Of a DNA stretch of 33,999 nucleotides, positions 23,237-33,676 are shown in pieces; positions within the stretch are counted from its first letter, which is position 1; each line of letters begins with the position of its first letter. The notes under the pieces were generated by a model. It was not told the DNA's origin. It ran no database searches and worked only from the letters and a program-made list of their open reading frames with translations. The stretch lies in assembly GCA_905234475.1 (NCBI GenBank), contig CAJOHX010000016.1:1-33999 (forward strand), in the 5' to 3' direction. The DNA comes from an uncultured Bacteroidales bacterium (GTDB lineage: Bacteria > Bacteroidota > Bacteroidia > Bacteroidales > UBA932). A program made the translations under genes and the position numbers.

Positions 23237-23321
23237 GGAGGTGTGGCCGAGTGGTCGATGGCGGCAGTCTTGAAAACTGTTGAACGGTAACGTTCCGGGG
23301 GTTCGAATCCCTCCGCCTCCG
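23237..23321 (+). tRNA. tRNA-Ser (anticodon UGA)
   Basis: This 85-nt gene has acceptor arms GGAGGTG (23237-23243) and CGCCTCC (23314-23320), a G discriminator, anticodon loop CTTGAAA with TGA, a long variable arm (TTGAACGGTAACGTTC region) and the T loop GTTCGAATC. Length and long variable arm fit serine. CCA is not encoded. The last 23 nt are duplicated at 29032, which marks this gene as the integration target of the following island. Confidence 0.95.
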
Positions 23322-23322
23322 C
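23299..23322 (+). repeat. attL: left copy of 24-bp direct repeat (tRNA-Ser 3' end)
   Basis: The 24 bases from GGGTTCGAATCC to CCTCCGC are identical to 29032-29055; the bases just outside differ on both sides. The repeat covers the T arm and the acceptor 3' strand of tRNA-Ser, the usual target site of tyrosine recombinases. Confidence 0.85.
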
Positions 23323-23332
23323 AGATTAAATT

Positions 23333-23370
23333 AAAACCCTGCTTTCAGTGCTGCTGAGGGCTGGTTTTTT
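23333..23370 (+). terminator. Possible terminator after tRNA-Ser
   Basis: AAAACC (23333-23338) pairs with GGTTTT (23363-23368), with inner CCCT/AGGG and CAG/CTG pairs, and ends in a run of T to 23370. It would end lspA-tRNA transcription just inside the island. Confidence 0.45.
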
Positions 23371-23382
23371 CTTTGCTCACTA

Positions 23383-23413
23383 TTTGATTTTGCGACCAAA
23401 GTATCTATATTTG
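23383..23413 (+). promoter_or_regulatory. Promoter at the island's left end
   Basis: TTTG (23383-23386), a 19-nt spacer and TATATTTG (23406-23413) match the Bacteroidota pattern fully. One TGCGACCA repeat (23391-23398) lies between the two elements, so a protein bound to it would block or alter this promoter. Confidence 0.65.
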
Positions 23414-23473
23414 ATGCCGTAAGTGCGACCAACTCCTATGTGTGCGACCACTTTTTAACAAATCGTGCGACCA
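23391..23473 (+). repeat. Four direct TGCGACCA repeats overlapping promoter
   Basis: Identical 8-mers TGCGACCA start at 23391, 23424, 23443 and 23466 (steps of 33, 19 and 23 nt). The last three share a preceding G. The set spans the promoter and the first codons of the next reading frame, and lies 70-175 nt inside attL. It looks like an operator or arm-type binding array rather than coding repetition. Confidence 0.65.
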
Positions 23474-24198
23474 ATTATAAACCTATTGATGACATTCGTG
23501 AGTTGATGAAGACCCTTGGAGCAGAGGATGATAAGAATAGTAAAACAAAGAAGGGTAAAGAAAAACCTACGTTTGAGGAATGGAAGACTTGCGATGCATT
23601 ATTGACTTCAGAAATGGCTCTTACCGCAGTCATGCTTTCCAATACCTATGAAGAAGCCATCAGACTTGCCATTTCAATGGGTGGTGATAGTGATACCATT
23701 GCAGCAATGGCAGGTTCTGTTGCAGCACAACTGTATGGCATCCCTGAGGCTCTTATTAAAAAAGCCCTTGTTTTCCTACCTTCTGAAATGATTGAGGTCA
23801 TCAATAAGTTTGAGGGCAGTGATTTCAAGCCCACAGGCATTAAACCGCCAAAGGTTAGCCGTTGGTGTAATAAGGATATTGTCGTTTATGGGGCAGGCCC
23901 TAAGGGCGAAAAGAATGATGAAGATGGGAAATATGAGACAATAAGAGGTGCACGTATGCAGGCGCATCCCATTCCTACCATTGGCAAGAGCCTTGAAGAA
24001 ATACAGGAAGGGGTAAAAGCATTCATTGAAGAAGCCAAGAAGAATCCTGATAAAAGGTATATTGTTCACAAGGTTGGCTATCATAAGGCAGGATATACAC
24101 TTCAGCAGATTGCACCTTTCTTCAAGGAGGCTGTTGAGTTGAACAATGTGCTGCTGCCTGAGGACATGCTAAATGAACTGACAAAGGGAATGGAATAA
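23440..24198 (+). pseudogene. 5'-truncated ADP-ribosylglycohydrolase with extra C-terminal domain
   Basis: The frame (252 residues from the ATG at 23440, whose first codons lie in the TGCGACCA repeats) contains only the C-terminal part of an ADP-ribosylglycohydrolase. Its TYEEAIRLAISMGGDSDTIAAMAGSVAA stretch carries the metal-binding GGDSDT motif (about residues 80-85). The N-terminal GDxxG and TDDT metal-binding motifs are absent and there is no room for them before the tRNA. A second domain (about 140-245: IVVYGAGPKG, QAHPIPTIGKSLEEIQEGVKAF, KVGYHKAGYTLQQIAPFFKEAV, NNVLLPEDM) resembles a conserved phage-associated domain (A1S_2505-like). Removal of ADP-ribose is unlikely in this form; the C-terminal domain could still be expressed. 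Confidence 0.7.
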
Positions 24199-24202
24199 TT
24201 GC

Positions 24203-24210
24203 TATATTTG
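24203..24210 (+). promoter_or_regulatory. Putative -7 element for the island exported-protein genes
   Basis: TATATTTG matches TAnnTTTG exactly, 5 nt after the ADP-ribosylglycohydrolase stop and 32 nt before the next start codon. No good TTTG is found at the -33 position. Confidence 0.4.
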
Positions 24211-24241
24211 AGCATTAAACAATAACACACGATAGCATAAT

Positions 24242-24802
24242 ATGAAACGTGCGATTCCATTTTTTATCATAATCCTATTGGCATTAGGAGAAGTAATTAC
24301 CGTTGCAGTGTATAATAAAGCGTACACCGAACAAAAAGATATGTGTAATTATCTTCGTTCTCGACTTGATGGGAATGAAAAAATAACTGCGAGTCTTCGG
24401 GATTCCATAAAGATGTTAAATGCATCCCCAAAAGAGATTCTTGACAGGGAATTAGACAAACTATCAACAGAGGAACTATATGCCTTATATAAGTCAGTAT
24501 ATCCTCCTCAAAGCAACAAGAGCAACAAAGAAACGGAAGCATTGCTCAAGGCGGCTGCTGATTTTGTGGCAAAAGAGCAAAGCATAAACAATAAAGGACA
24601 GAACTCTACTTTCAAGTTAAAATTGGGATGGAGCAAAGAGCAATGTGAGGCAGCGATTGGGAAAAAACCTGATAATACAACCAAATCCGTCAGTCGCAAT
24701 CTAATACTTGAATCTTGGTATTATTTCAGAAGTGATGGTTCTTGGCTCGTATTAAACTTTGAGAATGAAAAGTTGGAATCCATCTACGATTCACGCAATT
24801 AG
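24242..24802 (+). CDS. Membrane-anchored protein with BamE/SmpA-like C-terminal domain
   Basis: The 186-residue protein has an uncleaved-looking N-terminal membrane anchor (KRAIPFFIIILLALGEVITVAV). A helical, charged middle follows (about 30-110). The C-terminal segment (about 125-186) has the SmpA/BamE-like pattern LKLGWSKEQCEAAIGKKP ... WYYFRSDGSWLVLNFENEKLESI, in which a short helix pair packs on a three-stranded sheet. BamE-like folds serve in outer-membrane assembly, but the domain is widespread and I infer no specific role. It is the first of four plus-strand island genes for exported proteins. AT-rich codon use contrasts with the chromosome around the island. Confidence 0.7.
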   Translation: MKRAIPFFIIILLALGEVITVAVYNKAYTEQKDMCNYLRSRLDGNEKITASLRDSIKMLNASPKEILDRELDKLSTEELYALYKSVYPPQSNKSNKETEALLKAAADFVAKEQSINNKGQNSTFKLKLGWSKEQCEAAIGKKPDNTTKSVSRNLILESWYYFRSDGSWLVLNFENEKLESIYDSRN

Positions 24803-24903
24803 GTTTTACATTACAACCTTATCTAAACGATAAGAACAGAATCAAAATTGATGATATAATCTTAACACTTTTTAACACGAAATAACACTAATACAAAACT
24901 CTT

Positions 24904-25614
24904 ATGAAAAAAACTCTTTTCATCGCAATGTCCATTCTTGGGATAAGCGCAATCATAGGTGGATGTGCAGGGTCAGGTAACAATTCTAAAATTCCGTCCA
25001 AATACAAATGGATATATGGCGAATGGTCTTCAGGAACCGCTTCTTTTACCATTCAAGAACCGAATCAAATATTTATAGACGATTCTTATTATGGATGGTT
25101 GAAGTTCGGTATAGAAGAAGATAAATTACATGCATATCTTGCCCAAGATTGGCTTGAGTTTACTCTCAATAGTTCCAATCAGACTATTATGGATGAAAGT
25201 GGTGATATGTATATGAAAGGTGGCGAAATCAAAAACACATCAAATAAAGGCTCAAGGGGAAAAACATCATCAACCGAAAGGAGTTCCAATTCAAGAACCT
25301 CAACCGTAAGTGAAATAGATATTGTTGGCGAGTGGGTATTCAAAGGTGGCAAGCAAGGTGATATGTACCACAGTCAAGAGTATGAAGAAGGTGTTCGCTT
25401 CAATTTTGATGGTAGTGGTGTTTATAATAGATTTGTAGCAGAATATGCAGCAGGCAACTTTTTTAAAAGACATCGAAAAGGTGGGTCTTCTTTCACATGG
25501 GAACTTGTTGGCAATCAGGTCTATCTTACATTCAATGGCGAAAGAAGCCCTGTGTTTACTTACAATGATGGGAAACTCACTGATATGAGTGGCAATGTCT
25601 ATAGACGGCAATAA
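24904..25614 (+). CDS. Lipoprotein, lipocalin-like, unknown function
   Basis: The 236-residue protein has a lipoprotein signal with lipobox IGGC (Cys21). Two similar beta-rich segments follow, about 34-100 (WIYGEWSSGTASFTIQEPNQIFIDD) and about 138-236 (DIVGEWVFKGGKQGDM ... SSFTWELVGNQVYLTFNGERSPVFTYNDGKLTDMSG). They are separated by a Ser/Thr-rich linker. The GxW near the start of each segment recalls lipocalin-like or DUF-type small barrels of Bacteroidota. The repeat suggests internal duplication. It is expected at the inner face of the outer membrane or at the surface. Substrate or partner unknown; same strand as its neighbours with gaps of 101 and 38 nt. Confidence 0.72.
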   Translation: MKKTLFIAMSILGISAIIGGCAGSGNNSKIPSKYKWIYGEWSSGTASFTIQEPNQIFIDDSYYGWLKFGIEEDKLHAYLAQDWLEFTLNSSNQTIMDESGDMYMKGGEIKNTSNKGSRGKTSSTERSSNSRTSTVSEIDIVGEWVFKGGKQGDMYHSQEYEEGVRFNFDGSGVYNRFVAEYAAGNFFKRHRKGGSSFTWELVGNQVYLTFNGERSPVFTYNDGKLTDMSGNVYRRQ

Positions 25615-25652
25615 CCAAACGCCATGACGAACCGATATAATATTATTTACAA

Positions 25653-27458
25653 ATGAAACGATTCTTTGTATTCTTGCTGTTATGTCTATCCCTGTCTTGC
25701 TATGGACAGGGCAGCACATCACCTAAGGCTGTTGATTTAGGTCTCTCTGTGCAATGGGCATCTTGCAATCTTGGCGCGGAAGACACAAGATATGCTTATT
25801 ACATGATGGGCCCAAAGGAATATCGTTCCTATGGAGATTTGTATGCATGGGCAGTAACTAAACCTGCGATGGACTTGAATTTATGGCTAATTAATAGTAC
25901 TTCGCGTGGAGATGAAAAATGGAAAGACATAAACACATATTACTCGTGGTCAAAGTATAAATGGTGCAACTCCGATAGAAAAATAACAAAGTATTATGGG
26001 AATAATACGAGTATGGAACGCGCAGATGATGCTGCGACTATGACTTTAGGTGGGCAATGGCGGATGCCAACAGCGAAAGAGTTTGAAGAACTTATTAATA
26101 ATTGCACTTGGGAATACATTAGTGATATTGTAAGTACAGAAGACGGAAGAGATGCATGGGTGCAAGGGTATCAGATAACAAGCAAGGTGAATGGTAATTC
26201 AATTTTTCTTCCTACTGTACCATATGTAAGTAGTCGTAATGGGTGCTGTTATTGGACATCCACTTTAGACGAGCGGGAGCCAACTTTAGCAAAGTGTTTT
26301 CAATTTGACGATAAAAAAATCACTGAGATGGAACGGTTTCATGGTGCACCTATCCGACCTGTCACTGATGCAAAAACGCAAGAGCACAATAAGCCTGCCC
26401 CCAATACCTTTGACAAAGAGGATTCCAATGTGATAAATGTAGACACTATGCCTGATGGTCCGCCTAAATTTCAAGGAGGGGCGCCAAACTTGTTTCCTTC
26501 TTGGGTAGCGGAACATCTAGTATATCCCCCAAATGCAAAGAAAGACAAAATACAAGGGACCGTGTATACGCAATTCACTATATACCAAGACGGAACGATA
26601 CAAGATGTCAAGGTTACACAGGGCGTGAATCCCGAACTAGACGCAGAGGCTATCCGTGTAATCAAAAGTTCCCCCAGATGGACACCTGCAAAACAAAATG
26701 GCAGATTGGTTAAGTACAACCTCAGACTTCCAGTCGTGTTTCAACTGGGTAATGACGCGGAGACGTTGATGGAGCAGATGGAAGGGTCTCGTATCAATAT
26801 ATCCCCTTCAGAAAAGTCCAGTATCGGTTGGACCTTATTATCTTATGGTGACCCTATCGGAGGGACTCAGTTTTCACACAACTCTATAGGATTCCATTCC
26901 CTTGAGGAATCGTATCCGTATGGATTTGCTTTTCTGTCAGAGGAGAATACTAAGGTTTTTTTCTTCTTTAAACGGGAATATTATGAACTCACTGGCGACT
27001 TGATTGTGTGTGATGCAGCAGAGTTCTCTGTGAAAGATGGAATGATGTATTGCGAAAAGACCTTTGATTATGAAGTTTCAGGCGATAAAATTTGGCTCGG
27101 TGAGGAGTACTTAAACGAATTCCACAAGCATAGTGAAGATTCATACTTTGAACCTAAAAATTCTTCGGAGGGAGTATATTGGGTTTATAACGGAATTAAA
27201 TACCATCCGAGGATGTATCCTGATGATTATTGTAAACAGTTATATGAAAAGTCTTTTAATAGAGCACCTGACGTTATTATTTTGGATGAAGTAGACCCAA
27301 CTACTAATCCTGCTGCACGTGCAAATCAGATACAGATGGAATCCATCAAATTAATTAAAGAACTTAATAATACTATTGACCCGAATGAAAGACAAAGGAT
27401 TAATAACAGACTGAAACAATTAGAACGCGAAGCAGAAAAGATAAACCCTTTACAATAA
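25653..27458 (+). CDS. Secreted FISUMP-like / TonB C-terminal domain protein
   Basis: The 601-residue protein has a signal peptide (KRFFVFLLLCLSLSCYGQ). A domain similar to the Fibrobacter succinogenes major paralogous domain follows (about 26-240: AVDLGLSVQWASCNLGAED, LYAWA, GGQWRMPTAKEFEELI, YWTSTLDE). A TonB C-terminal domain lies at about 274-364 (GTVYTQFTIYQDGTIQDVKVTQG ... IKSSPRWTPAKQNGRLVKY). The remaining C-terminal region (about 370-560) is of unknown type and ends in a charged helix (about 565-601). TonB C-terminal domains normally contact the TonB box of outer-membrane transporters; here no N-terminal TonB anchor is present. A cell-envelope protein-binding role is plausible. It is the largest cargo gene of the island. 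Confidence 0.75.
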   Translation: MKRFFVFLLLCLSLSCYGQGSTSPKAVDLGLSVQWASCNLGAEDTRYAYYMMGPKEYRSYGDLYAWAVTKPAMDLNLWLINSTSRGDEKWKDINTYYSWSKYKWCNSDRKITKYYGNNTSMERADDAATMTLGGQWRMPTAKEFEELINNCTWEYISDIVSTEDGRDAWVQGYQITSKVNGNSIFLPTVPYVSSRNGCCYWTSTLDEREPTLAKCFQFDDKKITEMERFHGAPIRPVTDAKTQEHNKPAPNTFDKEDSNVINVDTMPDGPPKFQGGAPNLFPSWVAEHLVYPPNAKKDKIQGTVYTQFTIYQDGTIQDVKVTQGVNPELDAEAIRVIKSSPRWTPAKQNGRLVKYNLRLPVVFQLGNDAETLMEQMEGSRINISPSEKSSIGWTLLSYGDPIGGTQFSHNSIGFHSLEESYPYGFAFLSEENTKVFFFFKREYYELTGDLIVCDAAEFSVKDGMMYCEKTFDYEVSGDKIWLGEEYLNEFHKHSEDSYFEPKNSSEGVYWVYNGIKYHPRMYPDDYCKQLYEKSFNRAPDVIILDEVDPTTNPAARANQIQMESIKLIKELNNTIDPNERQRINNRLKQLEREAEKINPLQ

Positions 27459-27502
27459 ACCTGTGTGTTTTTAATAATTTGAATAGTGACAACAAAATGC
27501 AC

Positions 27503-28180
27503 ATGAAGAGATTCCTCCACATATTACTACTTCTTCTCTCGTTGAGCGCGCTTTCGTCTTGTGATTCTGTAAGGAAACAAGAGAAAGATTTAGTAAACTA
27601 TATAAGAAAGATATCTGAAGCATCAAGCGGCATAGATATTACAAGTCATCTTTCTCGTGAAAGCAAAAACACATATGTTGGAAATGTAAAGTATGAAGCC
27701 AATGGAGAAACAGCATCTTTTCCTGTTCGAGTAGAAAAGGATGCAGCAGGTTCAAGTCATATCTATTACACTATCTCTCAAGAAGAAATTGATTTAATAA
27801 CTTCGTCTTTTCTTGTTAGGGCAAATCACGTGAATTATTGGGGCGAAATGGCTCAGTTTTTAAGAGGTGGTACCTTGTCCGAATATGAAAAGTATGACAA
27901 GGAGATGACAAGATACTTGGAGAATAACATCTTCCGCACGCATACTACTTCTTACATGGAGCACAACAATCGGTATGTGAACAACAATATCAAACCATTT
28001 GTGGAAAAACTTGGTGGAAATCCCAACATTTATCAAGGTCTCATCATCACAGAAGAACAAAGAAGACAGAATGAGCAAGAGTTCGATGATTGGACAAGGC
28101 AAGCCGTAAAAGATGCTCGTAATAGGTGGGTCGATGAAAATCCACAAGAGGCACGAAGAAGAGGTATCACTAAGTTCTAA
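27503..28180 (+). CDS. Lipoprotein of unknown function
   Basis: The product from the ATG at 27503 is 225 residues (an ATG two codons upstream at 27497 is equally possible). It has a lipoprotein signal RFLHILLLLLSLSALSSC with Cys21. The mature part is hydrophilic, with a strand-rich first half (TYVGNVKYEANGETASFPVRVEKDAAG) and a helical, strongly charged second half ending RWVDENPQEARRRGITKF. I do not recognise a family. It ends the island's plus-strand gene run, and a clear intrinsic terminator follows 30 nt later. Confidence 0.7.
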   Translation: MKRFLHILLLLLSLSALSSCDSVRKQEKDLVNYIRKISEASSGIDITSHLSRESKNTYVGNVKYEANGETASFPVRVEKDAAGSSHIYYTISQEEIDLITSSFLVRANHVNYWGEMAQFLRGGTLSEYEKYDKEMTRYLENNIFRTHTTSYMEHNNRYVNNNIKPFVEKLGGNPNIYQGLIITEEQRRQNEQEFDDWTRQAVKDARNRWVDENPQEARRRGITKF

Positions 28181-28210
28181 CGATAACCGATTTACTAATG
28201 ATAATAACAA

Positions 28211-28235
28211 GGCTCCCAACATCGGGAGCCTTTTT
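28211..28235 (+). terminator. Intrinsic terminator of the island gene run
   Basis: GGCTCCC (28211-28217), loop aacatc and GGGAGCC (28224-28230) are followed by five T residues (28231-28235). This is a textbook rho-independent terminator placed 30 nt after the last exported-protein gene and 4 nt before the end of the opposite-strand gene. Confidence 0.85.
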
Positions 28236-28239
28236 CATC

Positions 28240-28443
28240 CTACACGATATCACCTGATTCAATCCAATCATGTCGCTGACCATCATCGGGAAAGTTCTTA
28301 TCATCACCCCAATACTTCTTCATGCCTCTACTAATGGCGATTCGTTCAGCCTCACTTCTGCTTCTACCTTTAAGGCTGCTGCTAATCTTTGTCCTCACAT
28401 TCTGTGAGACATTCTTACTTGTGCGTTTATATTGTTTCTCCAT
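28240..28443 (-). CDS. Small basic NUMOD3-like protein
   Basis: The ATG at 28443 gives a 67-residue protein; an upstream extension to 28575 adds a hydrophobic leader that overlaps AT-rich repeats and is unlikely. The core NVRTKISSSLKGRSRSEAERIAISRGMKKYW resembles the NUMOD3 motif, a short DNA-binding helix module known from homing endonucleases, which alternates Ser-Glu-Glu-like and Lys-Gly-Arg elements. No nuclease domain is attached. The C-terminus is acidic (DDKNFPDDGQRHDWIESGDIV). It is the only minus-strand gene in the island, lies close to attR, and has a duplicated 14-bp sequence just upstream of its start. DNA binding, perhaps autoregulation or directionality control, is an inference. 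Confidence 0.5.
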   Translation of the reverse strand: MEKQYKRTSKNVSQNVRTKISSSLKGRSRSEAERIAISRGMKKYWGDDKNFPDDGQRHDWIESGDIV

Positions 28444-28460
28444 GCTTATATGTGTTTTAT

Positions 28461-28492
28461 TATAAATAGTATAGTTCCTATAAATAGTATAG
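28461..28492 (-). promoter_or_regulatory. Direct repeat upstream of the NUMOD3-like gene
   Basis: The 14-mer TATAAATAGTATAG occurs at 28461-28474 and 28479-28492, an 18-nt period. It begins 17 nt before the start codon (on the minus strand), where a promoter would be expected, and a TTTG-like element lies further upstream. This is a likely operator pair. Confidence 0.45.
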
Positions 28493-29031
28493 ATGGATAC
28501 CCACAAAAAGTCAATTTTTCTGAGAAAATATATACAGCCGTATGGAACCATTGAAAAAAGAAGGGGGTGGGTCATGGAAACTTGATTTTGAAGTGTGAAC
28601 CGTACAAATGTCCCATTTTACAGGCTATCATTGAAAGAGCATTGCCATATACTATCTATGCTATCTAAAAACTTGAGAGTGGGAGGCAGTTCACGACTGT
28701 GAACTATGGGGATACCCATCATGGCACTCAATCCCATGTCAATGATGCTCAGAAACCATTTTAGAAAAACCACCTCAACAATACAAGAAAAACCACCAAT
28801 AAGAAGTTGATTATCCTTTTGATGGCTCGTGTTTTATAAGAGTATGTGTATAGTATAATTTGTCTAAAAGGTATGTTGAAATGAGGTCGTTATGTTGCTC
28901 TTATAGATGTACGGTTGAAAAAATATGATTACCTTTGTGGCGATGGAGTACGAGGGTAATAATTTTTTTGTATCCGATATCGGAAACGATGAAAATGAGA
29001 CCAAGTGCTATAAGTAATTGAAAATTAGTAT
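28493..29031. other. Gene-free right end of the island with palindromes
   Basis: I see no supported gene. Noted structures are AGTTCAC-gact-GTGAACT (28688-28705), directly followed by ATGGG-gata-CCCAT (28706-28719); a repeat of ACTATCTATGCTATCT type near 28650-28666; a TACCTTTG promoter-like -7 element at 28930-28937 without a partner; and the perfect palindrome TCCGATATCGGA (28973-28984) 48 nt before attR. These could be recombination, transfer or regulator sites. Confidence 0.4.
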
Positions 29032-29055
29032 GGGTTCGAATCCCTCCGCCTCCGC
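29032..29055 (+). repeat. attR: right copy of the 24-bp direct repeat
   Basis: Identical to 23299-23322, it reproduces the T arm and acceptor 3' strand of tRNA-Ser without the rest of the tRNA. GC-rich chromosomal sequence resumes directly after it with a tRNA-type terminator. Confidence 0.85.
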
Positions 29056-29060
29056 TCAAG

Positions 29061-29105
29061 AAGCAGCGCATTTGCGCTGCTTCTTTCGCTTCGGCCCTTC
29101 GGGCC
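29061..29105 (+). terminator. Original tRNA-Ser terminator region
   Basis: AAGCAGCGCA (29061-29070) pairs with TGCGCTGCTT (29073-29082), followed by CTTTCGCTT and a second hairpin GGCCC-tt-cGGGCC (29092-29105). Before island insertion this would have lain directly behind tRNA-Ser. Confidence 0.55.
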
Positions 29106-29208: not shown

Positions 29209-29844
29209 CTAGAAGAGCCTTCCGATGCCGATGTAGAAGCGGCGGGTCTGGCGGCTGATGCCGTCCACGGTGCCCGTGTAGCGGTTGAGCAGGCCGAGGT
29301 CGTAGCCAGCGGTCAGGCGAAAGCCGCCGAGCTGAACACCAGCGCCGCCGCCGATCATCAGGTCGAAGCGGCCGTAGTCCCCGTCTTCATAATTGTCGGT
29401 CTTGCCGCCGAGGCTGATGTTGCCGATGCTCATGCCGCCCCTCGTGGTGGAGGCAAGGCCGTAACTGGCGGTCGGGCCGGCGAAGACGAACACGCGGACA
29501 CCGGACATCGGGCTGAGGCCGTAGCTGAAGGTCACGGGGACGTTGATGTAGTGCTCGATACGCGTGCCGCTGGCAGTCATGCCCCACAGCTCATCGGCGT
29601 CCTGTTCGTACAGGAGTTCATAATAGACACCCGGGGTGACATTGAGGCCTTCGACCAGGGGGATCGTGTATCCGAAACCGGCGTACAGGCCATTGACATT
29701 GGAGGTAGAGCCGTCGCCATTCTTGTTGAGTTTAAGAACGGTCGTAGAATTGACATAGCCAAGGCCCGAGCTCATCTGAGCGAAAGCATTCGTGCCGGCG
29801 AGCAGCAGCAGGGCTGCGCTGAGGATAACAATAATCTTCTTCAT
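29209..29844 (-). CDS. Outer-membrane beta-barrel protein
   Basis: The 211-residue protein has a signal peptide (KKIIVILSAALLLLAGTNAFA, cut before QMSS). Alternating amphipathic strands follow: LYAGFGYTIPL, LNVTPGVYYELLY, IEHYINVPVTFSYGL, VRVFVFAGPTASYGLAS, FDLMIGGGAGVQLGGFRLTAGYDLGLLNRYTG. It ends in RRFYIGIGRLF, with the terminal Phe typical of proteins assembled by the BAM complex. It fits the small eight-stranded OmpA/PorT-like barrel class; function unknown. It has its own promoter just after the acyltransferase gene and a strong terminator. Confidence 0.85.
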   Translation of the reverse strand: MKKIIVILSAALLLLAGTNAFAQMSSGLGYVNSTTVLKLNKNGDGSTSNVNGLYAGFGYTIPLVEGLNVTPGVYYELLYEQDADELWGMTASGTRIEHYINVPVTFSYGLSPMSGVRVFVFAGPTASYGLASTTRGGMSIGNISLGGKTDNYEDGDYGRFDLMIGGGAGVQLGGFRLTAGYDLGLLNRYTGTVDGISRQTRRFYIGIGRLF

Positions 29845-32559: not shown

Positions 32560-32597
32560 TTAGCCGACTCTTGGCAAACCATGAATGGACGACCGAT

Positions 32598-33275
32598 ATG
32601 AAAGAGAAACTCAGCACCCAATATAATGACGCAGTTCAGCAGATAAAAACTGCCATCTTACGCAGCCAAGCGAAAGCACTCGCTGGGGTGAACCAAGAGC
32701 AACTTGCCTTATATTATGGAATTGGCAGGTATATTTCGTTCAATACACGAAAAGGTTTTTGGGGTAAGGAAGCTATTGCGACCATCAGTCGCCAGTTAAG
32801 TGCAGAGTTGCCTGGTTTGAGGGGGTTCTCTCAGACAAATCTCCGTTTGATGCGTATCTTCTATGAGGAATGGAAGGCGCTTGAGGCTAATTCATCAGTC
32901 GCGACTGATGAATTGCCAACTGTCAATAACGGCGAGGAGGAAATTCATCAGTTGCGACTGACGAATTACGAAGATTTCCCGGTAGTCGCCTTTATGAGTA
33001 TTGGCTTTTCTCACCATTCGGCTATCTTGGCCGGGGCCAAGTCACTTGAAGAACGAAAATATTACATTCAACTTTGCTACGACCAGAAATTGAGTGTTGA
33101 CGAAGTGCAGAAGAAGATCGCTGATGATGCGTTCCATACTCAGGGCAGTATGCCCAATAATTTCATCGCCACTATCCCAGAGTACAAGCGCGCATTCCGC
33201 GCTATCCAGATGTTCAAGGATGAGTACCTGCTGGATTACGTTAATGTGGAGCAATTGGGTGAGAAAATGAGATAG
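32598..33275 (+). pseudogene. DUF1016 (YhcG-type) nuclease, N-terminal fragment
   Basis: The 225-residue fragment from the ATG at 32598 carries the DUF1016 N-terminal domain: YGIGRYISFNTRKGFWGKEAI, SRQLSAELPGLRGFSQTNLRLMRIFYEEW, FMSIGFSHHSAILAGAKSLEERKYYI and NNFIATIPEYKRAFRAIQMFKDEYLLDYVNVEQLGE. It stops at 33275. The PD-(D/E)xK catalytic half follows at once in another frame, where EIVHNVKNFIMTFG continues the normal protein. A one-base shift near the AAAA at about 33264-33268 explains this. DUF1016 proteins are nuclease-like and appear with restriction and mobile-element genes. Either a true pseudogene, a sequencing slip or two coupled chains is possible. Confidence 0.85.
32889..32967. repeat. 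Two related 26-bp palindromes inside DUF1016
   Basis: At 32889-32914, AATTCATCAGTCG is followed by its exact complement (13 + 13, no spacer). At 32942-32967 a diverged copy AATTCATCAGTTG + CGACTGACGAATT differs at two positions. They are separated by 27 nt and encode SSVATDEL and IHQLRLTN. Confidence 0.7.
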
Positions 33276-33283
33276 TACACAAT

Positions 33284-33676
33284 GTGAAGAACTTTATCAT
33301 GACTTTCGGCAAAGGTTTCACCTACGCAGGGAACCAGGTCCATTTCGACAAACTTGGTCACGATCATTGGGTGGATCTCTTGTTCTTCAATCGTATTCTC
33401 CGTTCAACTGTCGTGGTGGAGCTGAAGAAGGGTGCTTTCAAGCCCGCATACCTTGGCCAACTATCCCACTACCTTCATGTTTTGGACGATGAAGACCGCC
33501 TGGAAGGAGAGAATCCGCCAGTCGGAATCATTCTCTGTAAAGACGCCGACAGAACCTTTGTGGAATATGTGTTGCAAGATTACCAGCGGCCGATGGGTGT
33601 CGCAACATACAAGGTGAGCCAGGAGAAGCTAAAGGAACTGCTCCCTGATGAAGAAGAGATGAAGAAACTGTTGTAA
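33284..33676 (+). pseudogene. DUF1016 (YhcG-type) nuclease, C-terminal catalytic fragment
   Basis: The frame opens before a GTG at 33284 (codons EIVHN upstream are in frame), giving about 130 residues. It has the DUF1016 nuclease core: FIMTFGKGFTYAGNQVHFDK, Asp31 in DHWVDLLFFNR, Glu46 and Lys48 in VVVELKKGAFKPAYLGQL, and NPPVGIILCKDADRTFVEYVL. These are the catalytic residues of a PD-(D/E)xK fold, so the nuclease half is intact in sequence. It overlaps no other gene and starts 8 nt after the N-terminal fragment's stop, so independent translation by coupling from GTG cannot be excluded. Confidence 0.85.

What the first reader, a model, noticed from the sequence alone, without database searches (positions are those of the whole stretch)
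23299..29055. Integrase-less genomic island at tRNA-Ser with exported-protein cargo
A perfect 24-bp duplication of the tRNA-Ser tail brackets about 5.7 kb of AT-rich DNA in GC-rich surroundings, the classic mark of site-specific integration. Yet no tyrosine or serine recombinase is encoded inside. The cargo is mostly lipoproteins and secreted proteins, not typical defence or resistance genes. The island could be mobilised in trans by another element that uses the same tRNA site.
Basis: partly seen in the sequence, partly recalled or inferred. Interest (0 to 1): 0.72.

Follow-up and report, generated by a model that had tools for sequence, protein, structure and literature searches.

The report
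tRNA island that lost its integrase
A 5.7-kb stretch of AT-rich DNA with matching ends sits in a tRNA-serine gene of a bacterium and encodes no integrase; it is likely the remains of a mobile element whose own integrase gene was deleted, and it would need an integrase from another element to move again.

Summary
The 24-bp tail of tRNA-Ser(UGA) recurs exactly, 5,733 bp on, around DNA of 39% GC in flanks of 60-63%. Neither the island nor its 86%-complete MAG shows a tRNA-Ser integrase. Relatives have empty sites, where the tRNA's native terminator follows it directly.

The island reads best as a decayed element. Just inside its left end are four TGCGACCA repeats. In this genus the motif class TGYGACY precedes the integrase gene in 18 of 19 close relatives of an integrase found at this tRNA in another MAG, but in 0 of 11 more distant ones. 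The island's left end aligns best with those of three such integrases at other tRNA-Ser genes. Where the integrase should begin, the island has an ADP-ribosylglycohydrolase gene lacking its first ~187 codons, starting 8 nt after the last repeat.

In that other MAG a complete ~24-kb element of this class sits at tRNA-Ser(UGA), followed by a second left end without an integrase. The arrangement resembles a cis-mobilizable element; movement in trans is plausible but untested. The cargo includes four predicted exported proteins of unknown function.

The parts
23237..23322 (+). tRNA-Ser(UGA), intact; integration target
   Evidence: ARAGORN
23299..23322 (+). left 24-bp repeat (attL core, inside the tRNA 3' end)
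23323..23373 (+). island-borne replacement terminator region (weak hairpin followed by T-run), by eye
   Evidence: aligns with the same place in the G152 left end
23390..23474 (+). four direct copies of TGCGACCA (starts 23391, 23424, 23443, 23466; spacing 33, 19, 23): putative integrase-binding (arm-type) or integrase-promoter sites
   Evidence: same motif class upstream of 18 of 19 related integrases; binding inferred, not tested
23474..23482 (+). deletion joint (inferred): last motif copy ends 23473, ADP-ribosylglycohydrolase homology begins 23482 at residue 188 of 421 of P0122
23440..24198 (+). 5'-truncated ADP-ribosylglycohydrolase + A1S_2505-type domain ORF
   Evidence: Pfam PF03747 profile positions 211-281 of 287; NCBIfam NF049995, 45.1 bits against a cut-off of 45; alignment A1
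24242..24802 (+). 186-aa membrane-anchored protein, no family
   Evidence: single-sequence fold of low confidence
24904..25614 (+). predicted lipoprotein with lipocalin-like domain (PF13648)
25653..27458 (+). 601-aa exported protein; residues 1-365 match the whole of P0001 (98%), residues 365-594 match the C-terminal part of P0002 (67%): likely an in-frame fusion of two cargo genes
27503..28180 (+). predicted lipoprotein, near-orphan (6 proteins found, own included)
   Evidence: model pLDDT 88.6, no fold match at E <= 0.001
28240..28440 (-). small basic protein of about 66 aa, weak similarity to a homing-endonuclease family
   Evidence: phrog_314 E 0.0038 for the longer frame 28240-28575
28576..29031 (.). 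right end of the island, no gene recognised
29032..29055 (+). right 24-bp repeat (attR core)
29056..29090 (+). native tRNA terminator hairpin, displaced by the island
   Evidence: directly follows the intact tRNA in G200, G119, G251 (by eye) and G119, G019 (blastn)

Best explanation
This 5.7-kb AT-rich island is bracketed by an exact 24-bp repeat of the tRNA-Ser(UGA) tail and encodes no integrase; it is likely the remnant of a mobile element whose tyrosine-integrase gene was lost in a deletion that joined the integrase's upstream repeats to the middle of an ADP-ribosylglycohydrolase gene. Shown: the repeats, the empty site in relatives, the motif repeats, the truncated gene and the absence of an integrase. 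Inferred: an element with a TGYGACY-type tyrosine integrase entered the tRNA by site-specific recombination; one deletion then removed the integrase and neighbouring genes while leaving both attachment cores and the left-end motif array. The island would now be passive, replicating with the chromosome, but an integrase of the same class arriving on another element (as in G691) would be expected to recognise its ends and could excise it or form a tandem with it. The cargo that remains is predicted to be exported to the cell envelope; its function is unknown.
For: (1) Exact 24-bp repeat, only two copies in the MAG, with a sharp composition change. (2) Empty sites: the terminator that follows the right repeat follows the intact tRNA directly in G200, G119, G251 and G019, and a match to the next gene (OMP barrel) begins 0.14 and 0.39 kb after the tRNA in G205 and G259. 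(3) A genome-contig scan for a tRNA-Ser tail followed by two GCGACCA copies gave one hit, JAFYYW010000018.1. There a complete ~24-kb element sits at tRNA-Ser(UGA): a 382-aa integrase (Phage_integrase, Arm-DNA-bind_5) starts about 25 nt after the second of two motif copies, and a 42-bp tail copy lies 23.9 kb on. (4) Among genus integrases, TGYGACY lies within 200 nt upstream in 18 of 19 of the closest relatives of the G691 integrase (30 copies; 2000 mono-shuffles: mean 0.68 loci, max 4; G143 is the miss) and in 0 of the next 11; a tRNA lies within 420 nt upstream on the same strand in 18 of 19 (G217 is the miss) versus 3 of 11. (5) The island's left end (tRNA excluded) aligns best with those of G152 (z 9.5), G090 (7.5) and G287 (4.4), which are the three of the 19 with a same-strand tRNA-Ser upstream (CGA, GGA, GCT); the next best z is 2.9. 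Motif spacing is 33,19 in the window and 32,19 in G152. (6) ADP-ribosylglycohydrolase homology starts at residue 188 of 421, 8 nt after the last motif; of the 20 best-scoring matches in 300 genus genomes the window's is the only one that begins after residue 16. (7) In G691 the right tail copy is followed by a second left end, two mismatches to the first until it diverges 5 nt after the motif, with no integrase behind it.
Against: The G691 left end as a whole is not clearly similar to the window's (27 of 2000 shuffles reach the score); it shares the motif, the layout and the tRNA. Only 3 of the 19 close left ends align far above shuffles. G691 shares no cargo with the island (no tblastx hit at 1e-3). 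Intact ADP-ribosylglycohydrolase relatives are not usually beside an integrase: 1 of 29 loci with about 1.5 kb flanks. Among the 20 lower-ranked matches, nine begin at residues 84-101 and one at 220, so shorter or partial versions of the gene occur elsewhere too. The right end has one one-mismatch motif copy (28996), by my rough estimate no more than chance. The integrases at tRNA-Ser genes do not form one branch. An integrase could sit in the missing 14% of the MAG. Binding of the motif by the integrase is inferred from position and subfamily alone.
Confidence: 0.8

Rival explanations
1. A true satellite that never carried an integrase: its ends mimic those of tRNA-Ser elements so that another element's integrase moves it in trans.
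For: Both cores are identical and the motif array is intact; integrases of the class exist at tRNA-Ser genes in relatives; a small 66-aa basic protein could be a helper.
Against: The truncated ADP-ribosylglycohydrolase abutting the array points to deletion. No second island was found: cargo searches of 300 genus genomes, GTDB contigs and IMG/VR (the two collection scans reach close relatives only) and a search of 300 genus genomes for three motif copies gave none.
Confidence: 0.12
2. Dead remnant (a special case of the best explanation, not exclusive of it): attachment cores persist by chance after decay, and nothing can move it any more.
For: One gene-truncating joint and a likely cargo gene fusion; no cognate integrase in the MAG.
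Against: 24 of 24 core bases and all four motif copies agree; the other cargo ORFs are open.
Confidence: 0.45
3. Chance repeat or assembly chimera joining two genome pieces at a tRNA tail.
For: The window is one contig of a fragmented MAG (53 contigs), and tRNA tails are typical misassembly points (recalled).
Against: Left and right flanks are each next to this tRNA in relatives. A near-identical relative of one cargo gene is held from another assembly (P0001, 98%, contig up to 14,597 bp); the 27503 and 23440 clusters cover 5 and 3 contigs, the window's own included, and their source column is blank.
Confidence: 0.03

Closest known systems
CIME (cis-mobilizable element), as defined in PMC5704250 (passages seen)
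   Same: No integrase or transfer genes found, both attachment cores kept, 3' end of a tRNA gene; the related G691 locus shows an accretion-like tandem.
   Different: Function of the attachment sites and an origin from an ICE or IME are not shown; here the integrase class that was lost can be named from its upstream motif array.
ssrA islands of Dehalococcoides without integration modules (PMC3146451, passages seen)
   Same: Integrase-less islands at the same target gene as complete ones; the authors suggest that they might be cis-mobilizable elements.
   Different: Serine recombinases and the tmRNA gene there; tyrosine integrases and tRNA-Ser here.
NBU2, IME of Bacteroides fragilis at the 3' end of a tRNA-Ser gene (table rows seen)
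   Same: Bacteroidota element, tRNA-Ser 3' end, tyrosine integrase.
   Different: NBU2 is listed with its own integrase and a MobP relaxase; neither was found in the island.
G691 element, JAFYYW010000018.1:152907-176829 (this work)
   Same: Same tRNA-Ser(UGA), same motif and layout tRNA-terminator-motif; some lipoprotein-like cargo (by eye).
   Different: 24 kb, has the integrase, SSAP_Sak, SSB, UvrD helicase and RadC genes; no shared cargo.
G072 island (L239:398-5281, this work)
   Same: Small tRNA-Ser(UGA) island, 23-bp repeat, one gene similar to the A1S part of ORF 23440 (tblastx 46% over 71 residues).
   Different: Own integrase of another lineage (31% over 216 residues to the G691 integrase), beside the right repeat.

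Membership tests
CIME | no integration genes | tested here: met
   no integrase by Pfam in six island ORFs nor by tblastn over the island
CIME | no transfer genes | tested here: met
   no relaxase or mobilisation family among six island ORFs in Pfam, PHROGs, NCBIfam
CIME | retained attL and attR sequences | tested here: met
   exact 24-bp repeats
CIME | attL/attR functional, mobilised in cis or in trans | not testable with these tools
   no reads, no bench work
CIME | derived from an ICE or IME | tested here: inconclusive
   left end homologous to integrase-bearing loci; no transfer gene among the 18 ORFs of the one complete element that were scanned
IME (NBU type) | own integrase and relaxase or oriT | tested here: not met
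   neither gene found; oriT not searched
Prophage or phage satellite | phage structural, packaging or replication genes | tested here: not met
   six ORFs against PHROGs: terminase small subunit only at E 0.04; the ADP-ribosylglycohydrolase fragment matches phrog_6572 (E 2.1e-16, category 'other'), so that one gene does occur in phages
TGYGACY-class tyrosine-integrase element | motif array between tRNA and integrase start | tested here: met
   four copies in the window
TGYGACY-class tyrosine-integrase element | integrase gene of the class | tested here: not met
   not found in island or MAG; hence called a remnant, not a member

The most novel reading that the evidence does not exclude
Integrase-less islands that keep the attachment core plus the TGYGACY array are a recurring, trans-mobilised class in Bacteroidales: the array is an address label read by integrases of one tRNA-associated class, and losing the integrase while keeping the label is a route by which cargo of envelope proteins becomes a passenger of other elements. 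The window and the second left end in G691 would be two independent cases.
Probability: 0.17. Interest if true: 0.65.

Novelty: new member of a known kind. Interest (0 to 1): 0.42.

Why it matters
Integrase-less islands are often left as 'mobilised by something'. Here the lost integrase can be assigned to a class from a short motif array left behind, and concrete candidate helpers (G691-, G152- or G090-type integrase) can be named. That turns trans-mobilisation of such islands into a direct excision test. The motif rule (18 of 19 versus 0 of 11) may also help to find other amputated islands and to match integrases with their sites.

Tried and rejected
Cargo as a trail: the listed matches of the 601-aa protein in genus genomes cover only its TonB_C part or, in a few, its N-terminal part (listing capped), and IMG/VR gave none; the 27503 protein gave no GTDB relative. 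IMG/VR contigs with the 24-mer (3) were unrelated tRNA contexts. In 300 genus genomes the triple GCGACCA pattern was found in 7; the six others, read from the matched letters alone, look like tandem or coding repeats. The one other order-level hit, G664, lies in a repetitive coding region. The IMG/VR search with the ADP-ribosylglycohydrolase alignment gave three distant hits, not pursued. One search compared upstream regions without turning minus-strand loci and is invalid; one search repeats it with the strands corrected. Serine recombinase PF07508: none in the MAG. Structures: 24242 gave a poor model; 27503 gave a good model without a fold match at E <= 0.001. Defence: the only PADLOC match in the six island ORFs is HEC-02B at E 0.0056 for 27503, which I do not count. 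The integrase hit 3.2 kb from tRNA-Ser in G126 lies among restriction-modification genes (read by eye) and was not counted as an element.

Rows dropped: of the 70 genomes with the 24-mer, G212 (contig end) was not fetched, and several contigs end soon after the tRNA (for example L264, 155 nt). The integrase screen of these sites used two query integrases only, so others may be missed. In one search the 19 closest integrases are the first 19 rows; the next 11 rows with a locus are the comparison. G230 (L308) is in the second set by rank although its partial match is 42-45% identical; it was left out of the tree.
Full report
WHAT IS THERE. The window is the whole of contig C16 (33,999 bp) of a GC-rich MAG of 2.31 Mb, 86% complete, apparently Bacteroidales (inferred from its protein relatives; no call names it). 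An intact tRNA-Ser(UGA) lies at 23237-23322. Its last 24 bases recur exactly at 29032-29055 and nowhere else in the MAG. The 5,733 bp between have 38.9% GC against 63.2% and 60.1% in the flanks, and a dinucleotide signature outside the range of 43 overlapping same-size flank windows.

EMPTY SITE. Of 300 genus genomes, own included, 70 carry the exact 24-mer. Only the own genome, G145 and G199 have two copies, and in G145 and G199 both copies belong to tRNA genes on different contigs. I read the 3' side of the copy in 69 of the 70 (G212 left out); G049's copy runs off its contig within tRNA sequence. Apart from the own genome, none has a bare 24-bp tail copy; G072 has a 23-bp one, and G028, G080, G200 and G259 have copies of 14-18 bp within 200 nt of the tRNA. 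The hairpin terminator that follows the right repeat in the window follows the intact tRNA directly in G200, G119, G251 and G019, and a match to the next window gene (OMP barrel, 29209-29844) begins 0.14 kb and 0.39 kb after the tRNA in G205 and G259. On the left, lspA and the tRNA are continuous at 84% identity with G097. The island is therefore an insertion that split the tRNA from its terminator and brought a replacement.

NO INTEGRASE. Pfam, PHROGs and NCBIfam show none in six island ORFs, and tblastn with three integrases finds nothing better than E 0.72. The MAG has three Phage_integrase genes: two without a tRNA nearby that read as Xer-like (by eye), and one beside tRNA-Ala(GGC). It has no PF07508 recombinase and no match at E <= 1e-30 to the G691 integrase.

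THE LEFT END LOOKS LIKE AN INTEGRASE'S UPSTREAM REGION. Four TGCGACCA copies lie at 23391, 23424, 23443 and 23466. A single scan of GTDB contigs for a tRNA-Ser tail followed by two such motifs gave one hit, JAFYYW010000018.1, a water-buffalo omasum Bacteroidales MAG. There, lspA (by eye) and tRNA-Ser(UGA) are followed by a terminator, TTGCGACCA, TTGCGACTA and then a 382-aa tyrosine integrase with Arm-DNA-bind_5; a 42-bp tail copy lies 23.9 kb further on. Searching 300 genus genomes with this integrase gave 39 with a match at E <= 1e-30. I took the first 19 loci as the close set and the next 11 as the comparison. The motif TGYGACY occurs within 200 nt upstream of the integrase start in 18 of 19 close loci and 0 of 11 others (shuffle mean 0.68 and 0.37 loci); a same-strand tRNA lies within 420 nt upstream in 18 of 19 and 3 of 11. 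So the motif marks an integrase class, not tRNA-linked integrases in general: the integrases beside tRNA-Ser(UGA) in G026, G013 and G049 belong to another lineage (tree) and lack it. The window's left end, tRNA excluded, aligns most strongly with G152 (z 9.5), G090 (z 7.5) and G287 (z 4.4), the three close loci with a same-strand tRNA-Ser upstream; the other 27 loci reach at most z 2.9. With G152 the spacing also agrees. G152 and G090 are sisters in the tree, but G691 and G287 group elsewhere, so tRNA-Ser integrases are not one branch. Similarity to the G691 left end beyond the motif is weak (27 of 2000 shuffles reach it).

THE DELETION. ORF 23440-24198 matches only the C-terminal part of ADP-ribosylglycohydrolase (profile 211-281 of 287) plus an A1S_2505-type domain. 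The nine relatives that I chose for alignment A1 are 398-440 aa long; shorter entries, many from short contigs, also occur. In 300 genus genomes the window's match begins at residue 188 of P0122, at base 23482, while the other 19 of the 20 best begin at residues 8-16; of the next 20, nine begin at 84-101 and one at 220. The last motif copy ends at 23473. The simplest history is one deletion from just behind the array, through the integrase, into this gene. The cargo may hold a second joint: residues 1-365 of the 601-aa protein match a whole 365-aa relative (98%), and residues 365-594 match the C-terminal part of a different lipoprotein (67%).

ACCRETION IN G691. The right tail copy of the complete element is followed by a second left end, two mismatches to the first over the terminator and motif, which diverges 5 nt behind the motif with no integrase after it. 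This is what a tandem of an element with a remnant of the same class would leave, as described for CIMEs in PMC5704250 (passage).

HOW IT MOST LIKELY WORKS. Shown: insertion, repeats, array, truncation, no integrase. Inferred: arrival by a TGYGACY-class tyrosine integrase; loss of that gene; present passivity; recognisability by a helper integrase. Integrases stand beside this tRNA in G072, G049, G013, G026 and G691, so helpers are plausible; only in G072 and G691 did I see a second tail copy, and only G691 is of the matching class. Whether the island is dead or still mobilisable cannot be told from sequence.

CARGO. The four remaining ORFs on the + strand carry export or anchor signals as read by eye; the only PADLOC match among island ORFs is weak (E 0.0056). 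The 27503 protein is one of six relatives, itself included, in a search of 5.8 billion proteins and has a confident model without a fold match at E <= 0.001. Their function is open.

RELATION TO KNOWN KINDS. Integrase-less islands with attachment sites are known as CIMEs (PMC5704250, passages) and were suggested for Dehalococcoides ssrA islands without integration modules (PMC3146451, passages). In the searched library only two papers hold both 'Bacteroid' and 'cis-mobilizable': the 2017 review and, by its title in the listing, a Pseudomonas toxin-antitoxin study. Searches were seen as listings only. This is not a proof of absence. I call it a new member of a known kind, CIME-like, with function of its sites untested.

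Noticed in passing
L037, L039, L041, L044, L045 (G058, G004, G015, G008, G065): tRNA-Ser(UGA) lies on the opposite strand relative to lspA in 5 of 20 relatives read, in two of them only about 40 bp from the lspA match: the tRNA seems to flip between species.
   Followed up: no
window 32571-33676: A DUF1016/YhcG nuclease (PADLOC PDC-S02) is split into two adjacent ORFs of 234 and 130 aa in a second AT-rich segment at the contig end.
   Followed up: partly
L285 11788-11943 (JAFYYW010000018.1:176788-176943): Second, integrase-less left end directly behind the complete G691 element, diverging 5 nt after the motif.
   Followed up: partly
L239 398-5281: G072 carries a 4.9-kb tRNA-Ser(UGA) island with two ATPase-like ORFs (by eye), an A1S-like gene and its own integrase beside the right repeat.
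   Followed up: partly
window 25653-27458: The 601-aa protein looks like an in-frame fusion of two exported proteins that are held apart in other assemblies.
   Followed up: partly
L056 1641-3249: The MAG's one element-type integrase sits at tRNA-Ala(GGC) with its own short repeats (TTTTAGTACA twice, by eye) between tRNA and integrase.
   Followed up: no
L042 6888-7000 (G045): Another tRNA-Ser(UGA) with an AT-rich left end and TATCCCAAA repeats (by eye) but no integrase seen behind it: possibly another amputated element.
   Followed up: no
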